A DNA stretch of 64,000 nt from Candidatus Scalindua sediminis (GTDB lineage: Bacteria > Planctomycetota > Brocadiia > Brocadiales > Scalinduaceae), in contig VSDH01000007.1 of assembly GCA_008636105.1 (NCBI GenBank), forward strand, positions 1 to 64,000, given 5' to 3'. Each line of letters begins with the position of its first letter. The first letter of the stretch is position 1. The position numbers were made by a program, and so were the translations under genes. The notes under the pieces were generated by a model. That model worked only from the letters and a program-made list of their open reading frames with translations, was not told where the DNA came from and did not search any database. Below, piece by piece: positions 16,708-26,312 of this stretch.

Positions 16708-17703
16708 TTATTTCTCATCTGGTGGAAAGTCTTGTTTTATACTAAGCGATAAGTTGATTTTTGGCCGTAGATATATAAGCCAGAACGTTATGCCTACCAG
16801 AATAACGCCCCCAACAATGTTTCCTAGAATTACGGGAATTTGATTGTTTACAAAAAACCCCGTCCAGGTAAGTTGGGAGAGATCTAATGACTTTCCCGCC
16901 ATTTTTTCTGCGGCCGCAACAACATCTGGATTCCTTTTTAATACCACGCCCATAGGAATAAAATACATGTTTGCAACACAGTGCTCAAATCCACTAGCGA
17001 TGAAACCAGCTACGGGAAATGTAAGAGCAATGATCTTGTCTGCCACATTTCTTGCACTAAAGCATAACCAGACTGCCAGGCATACCATCGAATTACATAG
17101 GACACCCCTTGCGAAAGCAGTTTCAAATGTTAAATTAACCTTTGTGTTGGCAATAAGTAATGCCTTTGCGCCGACCATATTATGATAGAATTCAAATTGA
17201 TGCGCATTATATACAAAGAAAACTATTACGAGACTACCTACCAGATTGCCAGAAAATGAAATAGCCCAGTTATTAAGTACTTGTTTAGTTGTAACCCTTT
17301 TGTCAAGATATCCAATGATAATTAAGCAATTACCCGTAAAGAGTTCTGAGCCAGCAACGACGACCAGTATGAGCCCGAGAGAGAAAACAATGCCTGCAAT
17401 TATTGAATTAAGCCCAAAGTGCAGTGTGGAATCACTTATCACTAAAGTGGCAAATTGTGCGCCAAGTGCAATAAAGACTCCAGCATTAATACCCAGCAAA
17501 AAGGTTTGCAAAGTGCTAAATTTTGTCTTTACTGATGCTACCGCGTCAATTCGGGATGCAATTTGTGAGGGTGAATAGGCGTCTATATCGAAAACCTTAT
17601 GAGTACTTTTTGGAGTCTCAGTAGGTTTTTTAACCTTAATAGGTTTTTTAGCCTTAGCAGGTTTTTTAGCCCTAATACGTTTTGTAGTCTTGATTTCTGC
17701 CAT
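16708..17703 (-). CDS. FNT-family nitrite/formate channel with Lys/Pro N-terminal tail
   Basis: This 331-residue homologue of FocA/NirC has six membrane helices from about residue 60. Family motifs are visible: 'GSELFTGNCLIIIGYL' for the pore loop and 'GFEHCVANMYFIPMGV' with the pore histidine. The first ~35 residues are a cytoplasmic tail of repeating KKPxKxKKP units, absent from the neighbouring paralogue. It is second in a two-gene operon, 12 bp after the other channel. In an anammox-type cell nitrite is the likely cargo; formate cannot be excluded. Confidence 0.9.
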   Translation of the reverse strand: MAEIKTTKRIRAKKPAKAKKPIKVKKPTETPKSTHKVFDIDAYSPSQIASRIDAVASVKTKFSTLQTFLLGINAGVFIALGAQFATLVISDSTLHFGLNSIIAGIVFSLGLILVVVAGSELFTGNCLIIIGYLDKRVTTKQVLNNWAISFSGNLVGSLVIVFFVYNAHQFEFYHNMVGAKALLIANTKVNLTFETAFARGVLCNSMVCLAVWLCFSARNVADKIIALTFPVAGFIASGFEHCVANMYFIPMGVVLKRNPDVVAAAEKMAGKSLDLSQLTWTGFFVNNQIPVILGNIVGGVILVGITFWLIYLRPKINLSLSIKQDFPPDEK

Positions 17704-17715
17704 TTCTCGACTTTA

Positions 17716-18618
17716 TTATTTTTTTGATGGTCGTAAATATATAAACCAATATACACCCGCAACTAATATAATACCGCCAAATAAGTTTCCAAGGACAACG
17801 GGGCATAAATTATCAATCAAAAACCCGTTAAAGAAAGTAAGATTTGAAAGATCTAAATTTCCCCCTTGTACCTTTTCAGCAGCCGCTATTACGAAACGGT
17901 CGCTTTTCAGGACAATACCCATCGGGATAAGCCACATATTGACTACACAGTGCTCGAATCCACAGGCTATTAGACAACTTATTGGCCAAAGTAAAGACAA
18001 TATTTTATCTAGATTATTTCTGGCACTAAAACACAACCAAATACCCAGGCACACCAGGGCATTACAAAGTACCCCTCTGGCAAAGGCAACACCAAATGAC
18101 ATATTTACTTTATCATTGGCTGCGATGACAATTTTGGCGCCAAGCAGAAAATCGTTGATCGTCCACTGTGCGGAAATGTATATCCAGAAAACGACGCTCA
18201 ATGCACCTAGAAAATTCCCAATAAATGCAATAATCAGATTTCTAGTAAGGTCTTTACCCGTAATCTTTCGAGCAAAAAAGGACATACCAATAAGGCAATT
18301 TCCCGTAAAAAGCTCTGCGCCGGTAATTACGATTAAAATCAGGGCCATGGTAAAGACGACACCACCAACTAACGCATTTAAACCATAACTAGAGGTTGCT
18401 GTATGTGTTACTAACATCGCTAGCTGTATGCCTAATGCAATAAAAACACCAGCAAGAATACTCAGGAAAAGCGTTGTAAAGATGCCAAGATTTACTTTTG
18501 TTATAGCTACTTGTGCAACTCTATCTGCCATCTTTTGTGGTGCATAAGCGTCAGTATCAATTATTGGTGTGGTGCTCTCTTGAATTGTAATGTCTTTCTC
18601 TTTCATCGTATCAGACAT
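17716..18618 (-). CDS. FNT-family nitrite/formate channel
   Basis: This 300-residue paralogue of the following gene has the same motifs: 'GAELFTGNCLIGMSFF', 'RGVLCNALVCLGIWLCFSAR' and 'GFEHCVVNMWLIPMGI'. The N-terminus is a short acidic tail rather than a Lys/Pro repeat. It is transcribed divergently from the sirohaem synthase gene, starting after AAAGGCGG. The pair probably arose by tandem duplication. Confidence 0.9.
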   Translation of the reverse strand: MSDTMKEKDITIQESTTPIIDTDAYAPQKMADRVAQVAITKVNLGIFTTLFLSILAGVFIALGIQLAMLVTHTATSSYGLNALVGGVVFTMALILIVITGAELFTGNCLIGMSFFARKITGKDLTRNLIIAFIGNFLGALSVVFWIYISAQWTINDFLLGAKIVIAANDKVNMSFGVAFARGVLCNALVCLGIWLCFSARNNLDKILSLLWPISCLIACGFEHCVVNMWLIPMGIVLKSDRFVIAAAEKVQGGNLDLSNLTFFNGFLIDNLCPVVLGNLFGGIILVAGVYWFIYLRPSKK

Positions 18619-18964: not shown

Positions 18965-19588
18965 ATGCCCAGGTTTTATCCTGTTTATTTGGATGTTAAA
19001 GGTAAGAGGTGTGTAATTGTTGGAGGAGGGGAGGTTGCATATCGAAAGGCATGCAGCCTGAGAGATGCGGGTGCAGACGTAATCGTGATCAGTCCTGATA
19101 CCTGCCCGGAAATGTCAAACGATAAGGGGCTTACGCTAATAAATAAAATCTATGATGAAAGTTGTTTAGATGGCGCCATGCTTGTTATTGCCGCAACAGA
19201 TGATGAGGAGGTTAACAAGAAGGTTTCGTCAGATGCAGGGAAAAGGAACATAATCATAAACGTAGTTGATCGCCCGGAACTTTGCTCATTTATCGTTCCT
19301 TCAACCGTAAACAGGGGAGACCTTTGTATAAGCATTTCAACTGGCGGAGCAAGTCCTGCCCTTGCCAGGAATATTAGAAAGGAATTGGAAGGTGTCTTTG
19401 GCTCAGAATATGGAGTATATATAAATTTATTAACCAGGATGCGTGATATTGCAATGTCTGATATAAAAGATGATACGAAGCGTAGAAAAATTCTCCAACG
19501 GTTGGCAGAAAAAGATATTCTGGAGATCGTAAAAACTAAAGGAACTGAAGAAGCAGAAGCAAAGATGAGAGAAATAATATTTCAATAA
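18965..19588 (+). CDS. Precorrin-2 dehydrogenase/ferrochelatase (Met8/CysG N-domain type)
   Basis: This 207-residue protein oxidises precorrin-2 to sirohydrochlorin and may insert iron to make sirohaem. 'GKRCVIVGGGEVAYRKACSL' is the NAD-binding loop and 'STGGASPALARNIRKELE' the chelatase-domain signature. The methyltransferase domain of full CysG is absent, which is normal for single-function homologues. It is the first gene of a rightward sulfur-related cluster and would supply sirohaem to the next gene. Confidence 0.92.
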   Translation: MPRFYPVYLDVKGKRCVIVGGGEVAYRKACSLRDAGADVIVISPDTCPEMSNDKGLTLINKIYDESCLDGAMLVIAATDDEEVNKKVSSDAGKRNIIINVVDRPELCSFIVPSTVNRGDLCISISTGGASPALARNIRKELEGVFGSEYGVYINLLTRMRDIAMSDIKDDTKRRKILQRLAEKDILEIVKTKGTEEAEAKMREIIFQ

Positions 19589-19766
19589 GGCCACGAGTTT
19601 ATTGAAATAAACCAGTTTAAACATTTCAAGCTTACTCACATTCTTTAATCCATTTGACATCGTTGTTCAATCTTTTTCTACTTGCAACATTTCACTCCTG
19701 GTGATAACATTTATTTATGCAGCTTTATAGAATCAATTCTATTATTTTAGTCTTAAGGAGCTCTTA

Positions 19767-20657
19767 ATGCCAGAAAGTACGGATGCTGAAAAGGTTGATA
19801 TAAATGAATTAAAATCTGGTGGATTTATAAAACAGAACCAGAAAGATCTTTTTACGGTTCGCTTACGGGTGCCTGGTGGCAGACTTGATATTGACAAGAT
19901 GATCAAGATTGCCGCAGTCGCAAAGAAATATAGCAGAATGGGTTATTGTCATCTTAGTCTCAGGCAAGCTGTTGAGATTATTGGAGTACATATAGATGAT
20001 TTTGATGCCCTGGTAAAGGAGTTAGCGGAATTTGGACAGCCAGTTGCATCTTGTGGCCCTAGGGTTCGTGTCCCTACCGCTTGTGGTGGTTGTGAATATA
20101 ATCCTCACGGGATTATGGATACCCAGAAAAAGGCACTTGAGGTAGATGAAAAGTATTTTGGTATAAATTGCCATCATAAGTTTAAGATGGCATTTTCTGG
20201 ATGTCCGATCGATTGTAATAGAACAACGGAAATGGATTTGGGTTTTCAAGGTGTTGTGGAACCTGTATGGGAGGAAGACCCATGTACAGGGTGTACCCTA
20301 TGTGAAAAGGCATGTCTGGAAGGTGCTATAGTTGCTGCAGAAGATGGGAAGCCTATTTTTTATAGAGAAAAATGCGTGTATTGTGGAGATTGTATAAAGG
20401 CTTGTCCTACTGATGCATGGACGGCAAAACGAAAAGGCTGGGCAGTCCGTATAGGTGGAAAGCATGGGAGACACCCCAGAGAAGCAAACGACGTAATGTT
20501 GTTCTTGCCAGATGAAAAGGTGTTTGACTTTATTGAACAAACACTTGACTGGTATAAAAGAAATGGTAAGCGAGGGGAAAGGATAGGAACCACTATTGAT
20601 CGTATAGGGATCGAAAAGTACAGAAAGGAAGTTGCACGACCTTTTATTACTGCATAG
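19767..20657 (+). CDS. Sirohaem sulfite/nitrite reductase-like protein with ferredoxin domain
   Basis: This 296-residue protein has an N-terminal ferredoxin-like half ('FTVRLRVPGGRLDIDKM') and a sirohaem/[4Fe-4S] region with C106-x2-C109 and C146-x3-C150 ('SGCPIDCNR'). Two 4Fe-4S ferredoxin motifs follow ('CTGCTLCEKAC' and 'CVYCGDCIKACP'). The order resembles AsrC/DsrA-type reductases. The sirohaem synthase upstream and DsrE, TusA downstream point to sulfite reduction for assimilation. The first cysteine pair spacing is not the textbook C-x5-C, so nitrite or another substrate remains possible. Confidence 0.8.
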   Translation: MPESTDAEKVDINELKSGGFIKQNQKDLFTVRLRVPGGRLDIDKMIKIAAVAKKYSRMGYCHLSLRQAVEIIGVHIDDFDALVKELAEFGQPVASCGPRVRVPTACGGCEYNPHGIMDTQKKALEVDEKYFGINCHHKFKMAFSGCPIDCNRTTEMDLGFQGVVEPVWEEDPCTGCTLCEKACLEGAIVAAEDGKPIFYREKCVYCGDCIKACPTDAWTAKRKGWAVRIGGKHGRHPREANDVMLFLPDEKVFDFIEQTLDWYKRNGKRGERIGTTIDRIGIEKYRKEVARPFITA

Positions 20658-21074
20658 ATGAAAGAGAAAAAATTTATACTTTTTCTTCATAGTGGTAGTT
20701 ACGATAAGTTATATCAAGCCGTGATGTTAGCCACCACGGCGGCCTCTATGGGGAGTAAGGTTTATATTTTTTTATTCTTTTGGGCGCTTGAGAAATTCGT
20801 AAATGATACGCTCGATGAGATTGAATTCCCTGCTGGAAGTCAGGACGAACATAAACAACTATTAGAAGCAATACCACAAGGAAGTTCAAATATGCTAAGG
20901 GAATTATTAGATGAAGTAAGCAAGATGGGAAATCTAAAAATCTATGCATGCAGTGGTGCTGTAAAGTTGATGGAACTAGATGAGGAGTTGGTAAAAACCA
21001 AGGTTAATGATATTATAGGGTTGCCTACAATGTTGAAAATGGCTGAAGGTGCTGAGACACAGCTCTTTATTTAG
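20658..21074 (+). CDS. DsrE-like sulfur relay protein
   Basis: This 138-residue DsrE/DrsE-fold protein has 'LFLHSGSYDKLYQAVMLATT' as the first strand-helix and 'KIYACSGAVKLM' carrying the likely sulfur-accepting cysteine. Its ATG follows the reductase stop directly, with no gap, so the two are translated together. It probably passes persulfide between the reductase, TusA and the JAMM-processed carrier. Confidence 0.82.
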   Translation: MKEKKFILFLHSGSYDKLYQAVMLATTAASMGSKVYIFLFFWALEKFVNDTLDEIEFPAGSQDEHKQLLEAIPQGSSNMLRELLDEVSKMGNLKIYACSGAVKLMELDEELVKTKVNDIIGLPTMLKMAEGAETQLFI

Positions 21075-21119
21075 AGGGTGGGGAACCTTTAATAGTAAAT
21101 TATTTTTTTAAAGAAAATT

Positions 21120-21794
21120 GTGATTTATATTAATCTACATTTAATCAACAGGATGCTAAAAGAGGCAAAGATTGCTTATCCTTACGAATGTTGTGGTTTA
21201 CTTGTAGGTAATAGTGATAATTCCAGGAAAGTAGTACATAAAATTTATCCGGTTGAAAATAAGAATAAGGTGAGAGCAGTGGATAGATATGAAATAGACT
21301 CAAAAGAGTTTGATGAGATAGATCGAGAGGCAACAAAAAAGGGGTTGAACATAATAGGTATATATCATTCACACCCTGACCATCCCGCGGCTCCATCAGC
21401 ATTTGATAAAGAATGTGCCAATGCATGGAGAGAATATTCATACATAATAATATCTGTTAAAAACGGAAAAGAAGAGGAACTGAAATCCTGGTGTTTTGAT
21501 TCTAAAAAGCAGGAGGTTGAGGAAGAAGAATTAAAAATAAAAAGACTCAACTTTATAATAGGTCTGTCGTTTATAGCATTTGGCTTTATTATTTATTTCT
21601 GCATGCCTTTGATATTTTTACTTCCTTTGTCCGTGAAATTAAAGACTAGTTCGGCTTACATAACCTATCTTTCTAGTTGGGGTTTAACAGGTATAGGTAT
21701 TGGTTTTGCTGGTAAGGAAGGTTATGAGTACATAAAGCAAGAGGTGTTAAAAGGTTTTTTGAGAAAAATAATAGGTAAAAATAAAAATGAGTGA
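21120..21794 (+). CDS. JAMM/MPN metalloprotease with two membrane helices
   Basis: This 224-residue protein starts at GTG 21120. The zinc motif is complete: 'IGIYHSHPDHPAAPSAFD' gives HxHx(10)D, with an upstream glutamate in 'YPYECCGLLVG'. Bacterial JAMM proteins of this type (Mec+-like) release cysteine or the carrier from ThiS/CysO-type sulfur carriers. A C-terminal pair of hydrophobic segments (about residues 145-170 and 180-200) anchors this one, which is unusual. No ThiS-like carrier is visible nearby. Overlaps tusA by eight bases. Confidence 0.85.
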   Translation: MIYINLHLINRMLKEAKIAYPYECCGLLVGNSDNSRKVVHKIYPVENKNKVRAVDRYEIDSKEFDEIDREATKKGLNIIGIYHSHPDHPAAPSAFDKECANAWREYSYIIISVKNGKEEELKSWCFDSKKQEVEEEELKIKRLNFIIGLSFIAFGFIIYFCMPLIFLLPLSVKLKTSSAYITYLSSWGLTGIGIGFAGKEGYEYIKQEVLKGFLRKIIGKNKNE

Positions 21795-22026
21795 AAATGT
21801 AGCAGATGAAAAGATTGATTTAAGAGGAGTTCTTTGCCCAATTAATTTTGTAAAAACAAAATTAAAGCTGGAGATGATGGAAAACGAACAGGTCTTGGAA
21901 GTAACCCTCGACGATGGAGAAGCAATGAGGAATGTTCCAAGGAGTATAAAGGAAGAGGGGCATAAAATTATAAAGGTTGAAAAACTCGATGGAGGGTACA
22001 AATTATTTATTAAAAAGAGTCAATAA
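21787..22026 (+). CDS. tusA: TusA/SirA-type sulfur carrier
   Basis: This 79-residue protein contains 'KIDLRGVLCPINFVKTKLKL', whose CP motif carries the persulfide cysteine. The family fold is complete. It is the last gene of the sulfur cluster and overlaps the JAMM gene. With DsrE it would move sulfur to biosynthetic acceptors. 'gene_symbol' is by family, not by proven orthology. Confidence 0.88.
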   Translation: MSENVADEKIDLRGVLCPINFVKTKLKLEMMENEQVLEVTLDDGEAMRNVPRSIKEEGHKIIKVEKLDGGYKLFIKKSQ

Positions 22027-22438: not shown

Positions 22439-22942
22439 ATGGCTGAAGCATTAAAAGAAAAAGAATTGAAGAGCGGTGGAATATATACGTCAAGAAGAAG
22501 CTTTTTTACAATAGCTGGTTGGGGAATTTTCCTAATGACATTGTTAGCCTATGCGTGGGAAACATTGGGGCCTAAAGGATTTTTCTTTCCTAAGGTTCTT
22601 TTTGAGCCTTCTCCAGTTTTTCCCGTTGGTACACCATCGGATTTTGCAGAGAATACGGTAACAACATTAAAGTCCAGGAAGGTTTTTATCGTTAGAGATG
22701 GTAATAGCTTTAAGGTAATATCAGTGGTATGCCAACACCTCGGTTGTGCAGTGCATTGGACAAAGGAAAAGAACATATTTGAATGTCCATGCCATGGAAG
22801 TAAATATTATAGAAACGGAGTAAATTTTGCAGGTCCAGCACCAAGGCCATTGTATCATTTTCAGCTTTCACTTTCAGATGATGGCAAGTTGATTACAGAT
22901 ACACGTAAAATTGTACCAATCGAGACGGAGTTGACTATATAA
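22439..22942 (+). CDS. Rieske [2Fe-2S] protein of the bc complex
   Basis: This 167-residue protein has an N-terminal twin-arginine-like stretch ('TSRRSFFTIAGWGIFL') joined to one membrane helix, then the Rieske fold with 'CQHLGC' and 'CPCHGSKY', giving both Cys-His cluster ligand pairs. It takes electrons from quinol and passes them to cytochrome c. TGGAGGTTAAATC precedes the ATG. It heads a six-gene cluster that continues to 29263. Confidence 0.95.
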   Translation: MAEALKEKELKSGGIYTSRRSFFTIAGWGIFLMTLLAYAWETLGPKGFFFPKVLFEPSPVFPVGTPSDFAENTVTTLKSRKVFIVRDGNSFKVISVVCQHLGCAVHWTKEKNIFECPCHGSKYYRNGVNFAGPAPRPLYHFQLSLSDDGKLITDTRKIVPIETELTI

Positions 22943-22989
22943 ACATTTATAAAATTCAATAAAGAATATTTATTAAAAGGTTAGGATAT

Positions 22990-24750
22990 ATGGCTCAAGC
23001 GGTTATATCTAAACAAGGGACACGGGTATCTCTTGATTTGGATTGGTTACAAAAGAACATTCGTTGTCAGCATCGATGCCCTGCACACATGGATGTGCCT
23101 GGTTACATACGTTTAATTAGCCAAGGTAAGTATACAGAATCGTACAAATTAATGTTAGAAACCAATCCATTTCCTGCCGTTTGTGGATATGTATGTCCAC
23201 GCCCTTGTGAGTCTAAATGTAAACGTGGTGATTTTGACAAACCAGTAGCAATTGATGCCTTAAAGCGATTTGTTACAGACTATATTTACAAAAATAAGAT
23301 AAAAATTCCACCCTCAAAGGTGAAACAGAGAGAGGAAAAAGTTGCCATAATTGGTGCTGGACCTGCTGGGTTAACGGCAGCCAATGACCTCGCTGGTATG
23401 GGATGTAAGGTGACTATTTTTGAAAAGGAATCTCAAATTGGAGGTATGATGATGTGGGCGATCCCGTCATTTAGACTCCCACGTGAGCAGATTATGTTTG
23501 ATGTAAGCAATATTCAGGCACGAGGTGTTGAGATAAAGACAAATACCCCTGTTGGAAGCCCGGGAAAGACGATTTCCGATTTATTCGAAGAAGGATACAA
23601 ATCAGTATTTATAGCGGTAGGTGCACAAAAGGTGAGGATGCTTGAGATTCCTGGAGAAGAAGGGACAGAAGGTGTTATGGATTGCCTGGACTTCTTAAAG
23701 GGTGTGAATACTGGTAATTTGAAAAGCCCAGGTAAAAAAGTGGCGGTGATTGGCGGTGGAAATTCGGCAATTGATGCGGCCAGGACAGCAAAAAGGCTGA
23801 GTCCTGAAGTTTATATAGTTTATAGGAGGACGCGAAATGAGATGCCAGCCCTCCAATTGGAGGTTGAAGAGGCAGAACATGAGGGCGTTAAATTTCATTA
23901 TCTTGCTGCACCGGTGAAAATTTTAACAGAAAAAGGGAAAGTAAAGGCTATGGAATGTATTAAAATGAAATTGGGTGAGCCTGATAGTAGTGGAAGAAAG
24001 CGGCCTGAACCGATTCCTAACTCTGAATTTACAATTGAAACGGACTGTATTATTACGGCTATTAGTCAGGAAGCAGACCTGAAATTTCTCGAAGAAGGTT
24101 ATGATATAGACGTTACTAGATGGGGAACACTTGCCGTGGACGACAACCTTAAGTCTAATAAAGAAGGTATCTTTGCTGGAGGTGATGTAACGCTGGGGCC
24201 GAGCACGATTATCGAATGTATTGCGCAAGGACATACTGCAGCAAAATCTATCGATAGGTATATAAGAGGGGAAGAGGTTCAGGAATCCAAAGACAAGGCC
24301 TGGGTCACGCTTATAGAAGGTGATTTTATTAGTGAACGAGAAAAAAATTATGATGTTACACCTCGCCGGGAGATGAAAACATTGCCTGAGACGGACAGAG
24401 AGGGCACGTTTAATTTAGTAGAATTTGGTCTTACTGAATCTCAGGCGCAAATAGAGGCCGAACGTTGTCTGAAATGTGATCTTAGTATTAACGTGGCGAC
24501 GGATGATTGTATACTCTGTGGTCGATGCAGTAGCGTATGTCCTGTTGATGCACTGGAGCAGGTTGATGTAGATACTGGTGGTGAACATCGGCCTCATGTT
24601 AGTAAAGATGGTATTGTGATAAGATATACTGATGTTTGTATCAGATGTGGTAATTGTAAAGATTGTCCTGTGGATGCAATATCCATGAAGCGTGTATTTT
24701 GGGAGCCTAATGAAGAAATCAATAAAATATTAGAAGGAAGCAATAGATAG
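22990..24750 (+). CDS. NAD(P)-dependent flavoprotein, GltD-like, bc-complex associated
   Basis: This 586-residue protein has an N-terminal Fe-S domain ('CQHRCPAHMDVPGYI', 'CGYVCPRPCESKCKRGDFD'), an FAD loop 'VAIIGAGPAGLTAANDLAGM' and an NAD(P) loop 'KVAVIGGGNSAIDAARTA'. A C-terminal double ferredoxin follows ('CILCGRCSSVCPVDAL', 'CIRCGNCKDCPVDAI'). It resembles glutamate synthase beta subunit but sits inside the bc operon. It probably couples NAD(P) to quinone or cytochrome reactions at the complex, perhaps by bifurcation. The last ferredoxin motif is one residue short (CGNCKDCP). Confidence 0.85.
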   Translation: MAQAVISKQGTRVSLDLDWLQKNIRCQHRCPAHMDVPGYIRLISQGKYTESYKLMLETNPFPAVCGYVCPRPCESKCKRGDFDKPVAIDALKRFVTDYIYKNKIKIPPSKVKQREEKVAIIGAGPAGLTAANDLAGMGCKVTIFEKESQIGGMMMWAIPSFRLPREQIMFDVSNIQARGVEIKTNTPVGSPGKTISDLFEEGYKSVFIAVGAQKVRMLEIPGEEGTEGVMDCLDFLKGVNTGNLKSPGKKVAVIGGGNSAIDAARTAKRLSPEVYIVYRRTRNEMPALQLEVEEAEHEGVKFHYLAAPVKILTEKGKVKAMECIKMKLGEPDSSGRKRPEPIPNSEFTIETDCIITAISQEADLKFLEEGYDIDVTRWGTLAVDDNLKSNKEGIFAGGDVTLGPSTIIECIAQGHTAAKSIDRYIRGEEVQESKDKAWVTLIEGDFISEREKNYDVTPRREMKTLPETDREGTFNLVEFGLTESQAQIEAERCLKCDLSINVATDDCILCGRCSSVCPVDALEQVDVDTGGEHRPHVSKDGIVIRYTDVCIRCGNCKDCPVDAISMKRVFWEPNEEINKILEGSNR

Positions 24751-24814
24751 GATTATAAATTTCTAATATAATGATTGTGTTAAAAAAAAGTAATGAGAAG
24801 AAGGGAATGTTCAA

Positions 24815-25585
24815 ATGAATTTAATCTCGGATATAATAAAGAAAATTACGGACAATGAAATTTGGAAGTCTGTATTTCGACATGGTTACGCGGATACCCC
24901 CAGAAACAGGGCTCTTCAGACTATAAGTAACGTATGGTTGCATATACATCCCGTGAAGATTCCAGAGCACGCTACGAAGATCCGCTTCACATGGTGTCTG
25001 GGTGGTATAACATTTTTTATCTTTTTTTTCGAGACAGTAACAGGCATTCTTTTAATGTTTTATTATGTCCCCGATGTCAATCGTGCATATGCAGATATGA
25101 TTGACTTAATGTACGCAGTACCTTTTGGACGTTTTTTGCGGAATTCACACCGCTGGGCTGGTCATGCAATGGTCATAACGGTTTGTTTCCACATGCTCAG
25201 GGTATTCCTGACAGGTTCTTACAAGGCTCCTAGACAGTTCAATTGGCTTTTGGGTGTAATGTTATTAGTATTAACACTTCTCTTAAGCTTTACGGGGTAT
25301 TTATTGCCCTGGGATCAGCTTGGATATTGGGCGATTACGGTTGGTACTAATATGGGTGGGGCAACACCTTTTATAGGTTATCAAGGTCCCTTTGCTGAAC
25401 TTTTGGGGGTAAAGATAAATAGTGATATACGTTTTGCTCTTTTGGGTGGTACTCAAATTGACGCCCCTGCTCTACTTCGTGCTTACGTATGGCATTGTAT
25501 AGCAATACCCATAATTGCTGGAGGGCTAATGATACTTCATTTCTGGCGTATAAGAAAAGACGGGGGTATCTCAGGGCCTCTTTGA
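24815..25585 (+). CDS. Cytochrome b6-type subunit
   Basis: This 256-residue quinol-oxidising core has four membrane helices. Haem ligands are visible as H-x13-H in 'HRWAGHAMVITVCFHMLR' and H-x14-H in 'WHCIAIPIIAGGLMILHFWR'. The x14 spacing of the second pair is the b6f rather than bc1 form. 'GYLLPWDQLGYWAITVGTN' is the Qo-side motif. The C-terminal half of cytochrome b is a separate gene 16 bp downstream. Confidence 0.93.
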   Translation: MNLISDIIKKITDNEIWKSVFRHGYADTPRNRALQTISNVWLHIHPVKIPEHATKIRFTWCLGGITFFIFFFETVTGILLMFYYVPDVNRAYADMIDLMYAVPFGRFLRNSHRWAGHAMVITVCFHMLRVFLTGSYKAPRQFNWLLGVMLLVLTLLLSFTGYLLPWDQLGYWAITVGTNMGGATPFIGYQGPFAELLGVKINSDIRFALLGGTQIDAPALLRAYVWHCIAIPIIAGGLMILHFWRIRKDGGISGPL

Positions 25586-25601
25586 TAATTAGGAGAATTT
25601 A

Positions 25602-26312
25602 ATGTCAAATCATGTAGAGGTTAACAATAAAACTAAAAAAGTTTTTACATGGCCAAACCTGGTAGCAAAGGAATTTTTGGCGGCCATTCTTGTAACTATT
25701 TTTTTACTTTTGTATTCGTATTATGTTGATGCTCCTCTAAGAGAACTTGCCAATCCAGGAGAACCTGAGAATCCGGCAAAGGCACCATGGTATTTTTTAG
25801 GTTTGCAGGAGGCCCTTGTCTATTTCGATCCATGGTTTGCCGGAGTGGTACTTCCCAGCATTATAATTGTTGGATTAATGGCGATTCCATACCTGGACAT
25901 AAATCCAAAAGGAAATGGTGGTTACAACTTCTCAGATAGAAAATTTGCAGTTACAGTTTTCGTTTTTGGATTTACCTTCTGGTTTGTACTTATAATTATA
26001 GGTGTATACATGAGAGGTCCGTTCTGGACATTCTTCTGGCCGTGGGAGAAATGGAGTTTCGATTTCCCAACGCCGCCACCACTGGTGAGTTTCCCTAACT
26101 GGTTAGGTGTTTTAGCACTTCTTATTTATTTCGGAGGAGGATTGATGCTCCCAATAAAACGATGTAGAAGCTTTTACGAGAAATTGGGGCTTATCAGATA
26201 CAATATTACTATGATTATGTTTTTAATTATGATGGGCGTAATCATAAAGATTGTTTTAAGGCTTATGTTTAATATTAGATACGTACTACAAACACCCTGG
26301 TTTAATATTTAG
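25602..26312 (+). CDS. Cytochrome b C-terminal part (subunit IV-like)
   Basis: This 236-residue protein includes 'NPGEPENPAKAPWYFLGLQE', whose family motif (P-x-K-A-P-W-Y-F) marks the quinol site in the PEWY-like region. About four membrane helices follow, including 'VFGFTFWFVLIIIGVYMRGP'. It is longer than plant subunit IV (about 160) because of extra C-terminal helices. It pairs with the preceding b6-type subunit. Confidence 0.9.
   Translation: MSNHVEVNNKTKKVFTWPNLVAKEFLAAILVTIFLLLYSYYVDAPLRELANPGEPENPAKAPWYFLGLQEALVYFDPWFAGVVLPSIIIVGLMAIPYLDINPKGNGGYNFSDRKFAVTVFVFGFTFWFVLIIIGVYMRGPFWTFFWPWEKWSFDFPTPPPLVSFPNWLGVLALLIYFGGGLMLPIKRCRSFYEKLGLIRYNITMIMFLIMMGVIIKIVLRLMFNIRYVLQTPWFNI

What the first reader, a model, noticed from the sequence alone, without database searches (positions are those of the whole stretch)
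18965..22026. Compact sirohaem-sulfite reductase-DsrE-JAMM-TusA sulfur module
Five genes in a row make sirohaem, reduce sulfite (or nitrite) and relay sulfur. The JAMM protease is complete (HSHP...S..D) but membrane-anchored, and no ThiS/CysO-like carrier is present, which is unusual since this protease normally acts on such carriers. The reductase's first cysteine pair is C-x2-C rather than the usual C-x5-C, so its chemistry is uncertain. The module may show how an anammox-type cell assimilates sulfur.
Basis: partly seen in the sequence, partly recalled or inferred. Interest (0 to 1): 0.58.

Follow-up and report, generated by a model that had tools for sequence, protein, structure and literature searches.

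The report
Anammox sulfite-to-cysteine carrier-protein gene module
These five genes look like one half of a pathway by which anammox bacteria turn sulfite into cysteine on a small carrier protein; the 'missing' carrier is encoded elsewhere in the genome and apparently has to be trimmed by the module's own protease before it can work.

Summary
The five genes are real and old: a Brocadiales (anammox) module, with the reductase (Sir) in 54 of 59 genomes, own included. In 53 relatives' loci JAMM follows in 50, TusA in 48, and a cysteine synthase, gone from this spot in the window's family, in 37. The 'missing' carrier exists: a CysO-type protein encoded elsewhere, beside a threonine-synthase-like gene in 46 of 49 loci. 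In 'Deltaproteobacteria' MAGs the same Sir shares one operon with that gene, TusA, CysO, CysM, JAMM and a MoeB-type E1. The carrier runs 1-24 residues past its GG in 41 of 49, whereas ThiS did in 0 of 20, and the window's JAMM is the genome's only one over cut-off: it probably trims the carrier and frees cysteine from it.

The parts
18965..19588 (+). Met8/CysG-N-type precorrin-2 dehydrogenase / ferrochelatase candidate (207 aa), last steps of sirohaem
   Evidence: TIGR01470 171 bits (cut-off 62), PF13241, PF14824; upstream of Sir in 44 of 53 relatives' loci
19767..20657 (+). Single-repeat sirohaem sulfite reductase (296 aa): NIR_SIR_ferr, NIR_SIR and an inserted two-cluster ferredoxin; C96, C106, C109 ... 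C146-x3-C150
   Evidence: strong match in 54 of 59 genomes, own included
20658..21074 (+). DsrE-family protein (138 aa) with a cysteine in the motif YAC(S/T), kept in the rows printed
   Evidence: PF13686, PF02635; downstream of Sir in 46 of 53 loci; 12 rows printed
21120..21794 (+). JAMM metallopeptidase (224 aa, GTG start) with a hydrophobic C-terminal extension found in most of this family only
   Evidence: PF14464 92 bits; motif HSHPDHPAAPSAFD; only Prok-JAB over cut-off in its genome; best PDB match 2kcq; in 50 of 53 loci
21787..22026 (+). TusA-family sulfurtransferase (79 aa), motif LCPINF, overlapping the JAMM gene by 8 bases
   Evidence: PF01206 80 bits; in 48 of 53 loci

Best explanation
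The module is the sulfite-reducing and protease half of a carrier-protein (CysO-type) sulfur-assimilation pathway. Proposed order: a DASS-type transporter takes up sulfate; sulfate adenylyltransferase and AprA/B make sulfite; the window's Sir, with sirohaem made by the first gene, reduces it to sulfide; TusA (and DsrE where present) hands the sulfur on; a MoeB-type E1 adenylates the C-terminal GG of a CysO-type carrier, which becomes a thiocarboxylate; a PLP enzyme (CysM type, possibly also the threonine-synthase-like partner of the carrier) adds an amino-acid skeleton; JAMM releases the amino acid and, earlier, trims the carrier's C-terminal tail to expose GG. Shown here: gene content, order, conservation, carrier tails, uniqueness of the JAMM. 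Inferred: every catalytic step, the use of TusA/DsrE as relay, and which PLP enzyme acts in the window's own species.
For: Synteny LysA-Met8-Sir-DsrE-[CysM]-JAMM-TusA-Rieske in relatives, CysM inside the cluster in 37 of 53 loci. In 41 loci from other phyla (37 titled Deltaproteobacteria) the same Sir (60-70% identity) sits in ThrC-like - Sir - TusA - CysO - NIL - CysM - JAMM - MoeB where the contig reaches that far; L179 (Daviesbacteria title) shows Sir alone. The genome's carrier aligns over residues 1-91 with CysO-type structures 4n6e_B and 3dwg_C and runs on past the GG. Tails: 41 of 49 Brocadiales carriers and 35 of 35 readable ones of the other loci have 1-24 extra residues; control ThiS: 20 of 20 end at GGG; Fisher p = 1.1e-11 for 41/49 against 0/21, own ThiS included (rows are related, so the p value is optimistic). 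One JAMM over cut-off in the genome. E1, ATP-sulfurylase, AprA, AprB-like and transporter genes found; no PAPS-reductase-family protein.
Against: The window's own genome has no close CysM: best matches 45% and 43% (cystathionine-beta-synthase-like and CysK-like by my reading), although 15 of 17 genomes of its family carry a 49-54% homologue at another place; G000 is 93.6% complete, so loss and gap cannot be told apart. 8 of 49 carriers have no tail, and those whose locus I read keep a JAMM, so trimming is not the protease's only job. 8 of 59 genomes gave no CysO-type match. Carrier, E1 and Sat/Apr are not linked to the module on the chromosome. AprB scores 60.6 bits, below its model's cut-off of 135.65. 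DsrE is missing in several loci.
Confidence: 0.75

Rival explanations
1. The reductase is mainly a nitrite (or sulfite-detoxifying) reductase that serves nitrogen metabolism; the neighbouring formate/nitrite transporters feed it, and the JAMM/TusA genes are only neighbours.
For: Two formate/nitrite-transporter genes lie just upstream on the other strand; sirohaem sulfite reductases often reduce nitrite as a side reaction (PMC10229431, passages seen).
Against: The transporters were not found beside Sir in any of 53 relatives' loci, whereas CysM, JAMM and TusA are; outside the phylum Sir is in the CysO/CysM operon.
Confidence: 0.1
2. The product is homocysteine rather than, or besides, cysteine: the threonine-synthase-like partner of the carrier uses an O-phosphohomoserine-type substrate with carrier thiocarboxylate, much as MetY does with HcyS in Wolinella (that system is recalled; only its citation was seen).
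For: Threonine-synthase-like gene beside the carrier in 46 of 49 Brocadiales loci and first gene of the operon in the other lineage; the genome has a second threonine-synthase-like PALP protein; the DUF39 homocysteine route is absent in 59 of 59.
Against: The protein scores over the threonine synthase cut-off of TIGR00260 (279 bits, cut-off 167); CysM is in most of the clusters; a Cys/Met-metabolism PLP enzyme elsewhere could make homocysteine.
Confidence: 0.2
3. JAMM deconjugates a ubiquitin-like protein tag (SAMP-like) rather than acting in amino-acid synthesis; the carrier modifies proteins.
For: The carrier comes close to the SAMP1 model (58.5 bits, cut-off 60) and JAMM matches the desampylase model below cut-off (77 of 130 bits).
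Against: CysO structures are far better matches than the archaeal SAMP1 homologue 2l52 (4e-23 and 4e-21 against 4e-5), and nearly all partners in the operons are sulfur or amino-acid enzymes.
Confidence: 0.08

Closest known systems
CysO-CysM-Mec+ cysteine pathway of Mycobacterium tuberculosis (as described in PMC3227635, passages seen)
   Same: CysO-type GG carrier (full-length match to 3dwg_C), CysM-type synthase in most relatives, JAMM protease
   Different: A sulfite reductase, sirohaem gene, TusA and often DsrE are in the cluster; the E1 is a 268-aa MoeB-type protein without the rhodanese domain of MoeZR; carriers mostly have C-terminal tails; in the window's family the parts are scattered and CysM is not in the cluster
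Gene-neighbourhood classes 4c and 4e of Iyer, Burroughs and Aravind 2006 (PMC1779556, passages and table rows seen)
   Same: 4e: ThiS/MoaD-like protein, JAB peptidase, E1 without rhodanese, SirA (TusA), ATP-sulfurylase, sulfite reductase; 4c: with cysteine synthase
   Different: The species codes listed there name, as far as I can tell, no planctomycete; here the cluster is split over the genome, uses AprA/B instead of PAPS reductase, and has a different reductase
Wolinella HcyS/HcyD/HcyF/MetY protein-thiocarboxylate methionine pathway (Krishnamoorthy and Begley 2011; recalled, the paper was not held)
   Same: Sulfite reductase near a JAMM; carrier with a residue after GG that the JAMM removes
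   Different: No MetY in the cluster; cysteine synthase instead; tails of variable length
Fsr C-terminal half and Dsr-like proteins (7npa, 7np8; PMC10229431 passages seen)
   Same: One reductase repeat with inserted ferredoxin; best fold match (Z 17.5, rmsd 8.3 over 253 residues) and best sequence match (E 3e-35)
   Different: No F420 domain; first cysteine pair not C-x5-C; an additional invariant cysteine, C96

Membership tests
CysO/CysM/Mec+ cysteine pathway | CysO-type carrier with C-terminal GG | tested here: met
   Residues 1-91 match 4n6e_B and 3dwg_C to the last GG; the own gene runs on past it; the carrier is outside the window (G000:C24)
CysO/CysM/Mec+ cysteine pathway | JAMM peptidase with H-x-H-x7-S-x2-D | tested here: met
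   HSHPDHPAAPSAFD; PF14464 over cut-off; only one in the genome over cut-off
CysO/CysM/Mec+ cysteine pathway | CysM-type synthase | tested here: inconclusive
   In 37 of 53 relatives' loci and elsewhere in 15 of 17 family genomes; own genome only 45% and 43% matches
CysO/CysM/Mec+ cysteine pathway | E1 with rhodanese domain (MoeZR) | tested here: not met
   The conserved E1 is 268 aa with the ThiF domain only; the second ThiF protein (343 aa) was not scanned for a rhodanese domain
CysO/CysM/Mec+ cysteine pathway | Cysteine formed on and released from the carrier | not testable with these tools
   Needs purified proteins
Iyer 2006 class 4e operon | Carrier, JAB, E1 without rhodanese, TusA and sulfite reductase in one neighbourhood | tested here: not met
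   Carrier and E1 near Sir in 0 of 53 Brocadiales loci; met in the longer loci of the other lineage
AsrC (TIGR02912) | Score over the equivalog cut-off | tested here: not met
   130.7 bits against 324.1
DsrA/DsrB | Scores over the equivalog cut-offs | tested here: not met
   64.5 and 86.7 bits against 392.85 and 341.5
Fsr | N-terminal F420-reductase domain fused to the reductase repeat | tested here: not met
   296 aa, the repeat only
Sirohaem reductases with canonical CX5CXnCX3C | C-x5-C first pair | tested here: not met
   Position of the second cysteine is Asn112 in 53 of 53 relatives and 41 of 41 other loci; C109 present in 44 of 53 and 41 of 41
Sirohaem reductases with canonical CX5CXnCX3C | C-x3-C second pair | tested here: met
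   C146 and C150 in 53 of 53 and 41 of 41
Sirohaem reductases with canonical CX5CXnCX3C | Binds sirohaem and reduces sulfite | not testable with these tools
   Model confidence under 50 at residues 95-114

The most novel reading that the evidence does not exclude
The reductase is a new sirohaem-cluster type in which the far upstream cysteine C96, not a C-x5-C partner, completes the ligand set with C106, C146 and C150 (C109 being replaceable by Asn), and it passes its reduced sulfur through TusA/DsrE straight to a pre-trimmed CysO-type carrier, so that free sulfide is never released; the carrier then serves two PLP enzymes, CysM for cysteine and the threonine-synthase-like partner for homocysteine, both products being cut loose by one JAMM.
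Probability: 0.15. Interest if true: 0.72.

Novelty: new variant of a known kind. Interest (0 to 1): 0.48.

Why it matters
How anammox bacteria, important makers of N2, get their cysteine from sulfate has no description that my searches found (the library lacks most subscription journals). This gives a full, testable gene list. The variable carrier tails give a natural assay for the JAMM's substrate. A reductase family without the canonical cysteine pair, with natural Cys-to-Asn variants at one of the remaining cysteines, makes the question of which residues hold a sirohaem-coupled cluster directly testable.

Tried and rejected
C-x2-C as the new cluster motif: I first took it as invariant, because all 23 rows of my alignment A3 have it. 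Those 22 homologues were picked by me from 80 loci, and VPTACGGC was one of the two search patterns. A check of all 53 Brocadiales loci showed Asn at position 109, together with Ala for Gly145, in 8 (L036-L042, L044, all of one genus of the window's family). Withdrawn; C96, C106, C146 and C150 are the invariant set.

Selenocysteine: one search flagged one in-frame TGA in many paralogous matches. Checked in L087: the TGA is the gene's own stop; the own genome's paralogue (L086) is a PCP_red/NIR_SIR protein beside sirohaem-decarboxylase-like genes. Rejected.

Decay of the JAMM where carriers have no tail: three f2 JAMMs failed a strict motif search, but they have a longer spacing after H-x-H, and one is cut by a contig end and one by masked bases. 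Rejected.

E1 always with DsrEFH: the own E1 lies between TusA and DsrE/F/H-like genes, but this held in only 4 of 30 loci.

DUF39 homocysteine route: 0 of 59 genomes.

Cysteine geometry from a model: the prediction (mean pLDDT 71.4, pTM 0.64) has pLDDT below 50 at residues 95-114, exactly the loop in question, so it says nothing on ligands. Fold matches have high rmsd (8.3 for 7npa), so they show fold family only.

Counting notes: carrier count: 49 of 50 loci given; L102 (a second MoaD-like gene of G051) was dropped; G058 (fetched later, L265) and G018 (partial) were not counted; 35 of 41 loci gave a readable carrier. ThiS control: 20 genomes, taken in ranking order. The motif print failed for several loci and was superseded.
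Full report
Observation. Sir, DsrE, JAMM and TusA are tightly packed (Sir ends at 20657, DsrE starts at 20658; JAMM and TusA overlap), while the sirohaem gene lies 178 bases before Sir. The reductase is one sulfite-reductase repeat with an inserted two-cluster ferredoxin; its best solved relatives are the C-terminal half of F420-dependent sulfite reductase (E 3e-35), also by fold. It fails the cut-offs of AsrC, DsrA and DsrB.

Where it comes from. Named close relatives are Candidatus Scalindua, Kuenenia, Brocadia, Jettenia, Loosdrechtia and Anammoxibacter; Scalindua belongs to the order Brocadiales, and records titled Scalindua are among the closest (78-84%). In the phylum, 37 of 392 genomes have a match at E <= 1e-60: 35 of the same order (own included) and 2 others at 55% and 42%.

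Conservation of the module. Of 59 genomes, own included, 54 have Sir at 65-100% identity (in G053 broken into two pieces, in G011 a fragment at a contig end). In 53 loci of 52 genomes (window and G011 not counted): JAMM 50, TusA 48, DsrE 46, sirohaem gene 44, and a cysteine synthase between DsrE (or Sir) and JAMM 37; none has the carrier or the E1 nearby (loci cut short by contig ends are listed there). The cysteine synthase is in 29 of 31 f5, 6 of 7 f2, 2 of 2 f4 and 0 of 13 f1 loci, f1 being the window's family. Fifteen of 17 f1 genomes have a 49-54% homologue elsewhere, in the four fetched beside a gene that looks like a TPR protein, not beside the module; the window's own genome and G008 do not.

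The carrier. The genome has two ThiS-family proteins. One is ThiS beside a thiG-like gene. The other aligns along residues 1-91 with CysO-type structures 4n6e_B and 3dwg_C (4e-23 and 4e-21) and lies beside a threonine-synthase-like gene, as in 46 of 49 loci read. From the places listed, a CysO-type match is present in 51 of 59 genomes (one partial).

All parts together. In 41 loci outside the phylum (L168-L208; 37 titled Deltaproteobacteria) the same Sir is, in nearly all, preceded by the threonine-synthase-like gene and followed by TusA, the carrier, a NIL-domain protein, CysM, JAMM and the MoeB-type E1 where the contig reaches that far; L179 shows Sir alone. A transporter resembling the own DASS protein follows in the four read in full. 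This ties the scattered Brocadiales genes into one system without relying on function names.

The tails. A carrier must expose its C-terminal GG to be adenylated (established for ThiS, MoaD and CysO; general knowledge). In Brocadiales 41 of 49 carriers continue 1-24 residues after AIAGG with no common sequence, 8 stop there; in the other lineage 35 of 35 readable ones continue, 28 by exactly two residues. ThiS of the same order stops at GGG in 20 of 20. The p value of 1.1e-11 ignores kinship. The window's JAMM is the only Prok-JAB protein over cut-off in its genome; the two weaker matches look like RadC-type proteins. I infer that it trims the carrier, as recalled for HcyD in Wolinella, besides freeing the amino acid as Mec+ does (PMC3227635, passages). 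Against trimming as its sole role: 8 carriers without a tail.

Upstream and relay. No PAPS-reductase-family protein was found; ATP-sulfurylase is clustered with AprA (765 bits, cut-off 557), an AprB-like protein (below cut-off), a DASS transporter and an Rrf2 regulator. A MoeB-type E1 is in 51 of 59 at E <= 1e-50, though G001's only hit is a weaker homologue; in the own genome it lies between TusA and DsrE/F/H-like genes, true of 4 of 30 loci.

The reductase's cysteines. Published motifs are CX5CXnCX3C for Fsr and assimilatory enzymes and CXnCCX3C for the active DsrB site (PMC10229431, passages). Here the second canonical cysteine is Asn112 in 53 of 53 Brocadiales and 41 of 41 other loci. C96, C106, C146 and C150 are present in all 94, and all eight ferredoxin cysteines in all but one (C213 in one of 53). 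In the 42% homologue L271 the canonical place is Cys again (read as C-x4-C), and C96 is still there. So C109 is unlikely to be an indispensable ligand, and C96 is the best candidate for the fourth one; this is inference, since the model is unreliable there. Arg66, Arg99, Arg101, Lys138 and Lys140 are invariant; that several of them line up with active-site basic residues of Fsr is my reading of the alignment.

Prior work. Iyer and others (2006, PMC1779556, passages and table rows) predicted sulfur-assimilation operons of carrier, JAB, E1, SirA and sulfite reductase, and others with cysteine synthase. So the kind is known; new here are its scattered form across Brocadiales, the Apr route, the tails as evidence, and the reductase's cysteine set. 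Searches for anammox with CysO or sulfate-assimilation terms listed no paper on this; none of the 13 hits holds the word anammox. Of those listings only titles and abstract starts were seen.

Noticed in passing
window 16708-18618 (-): Two tandem formate/nitrite-transporter genes of the FocA type, not found beside Sir in the 53 relatives' loci.
   Followed up: partly
window 22439-26312 (+): Rieske protein, GltD-like oxidoreductase and two cytochrome b parts follow the module, in the same order in most f5 loci; probably an anammox bc1-type complex next to the sulfur module.
   Followed up: partly
L086:3513-5746 (own genome, C23): A PCP_red/NIR_SIR reductase-like protein next to two sirohaem-decarboxylase-like genes, suggesting that sirohaem also feeds haem synthesis.
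   Followed up: partly
L001:1429-3151 (own genome, C24): Threonine-synthase-like gene paired with the CysO-type carrier, although a second threonine-synthase-like gene exists (L096).
   Followed up: partly
L262:7465-10646 (own genome, C48): TusA - MoeB - DsrE/F/H-like - TusA - GcvH-like gene run; the GcvH-like protein beside sulfur-relay genes may be a lipoate-binding sulfur protein.
   Followed up: no
L036-L042, L044: Eight Scalindua-family reductases share Cys109-to-Asn and Gly145-to-Ala beside the cluster cysteines; the two changes always occur together.
   Followed up: partly
window 21537-21791 (+): Hydrophobic C-terminal extension on the JAMM in 12 of 14 members of this family, weakly like a transporter suffix domain (24 bits, cut-off 40).
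   Followed up: partly
L169:10300-11511: A conserved protein of about 400 aa that looks like a radical-SAM enzyme follows the E1 in the operons of the other lineage; role unknown.
   Followed up: no
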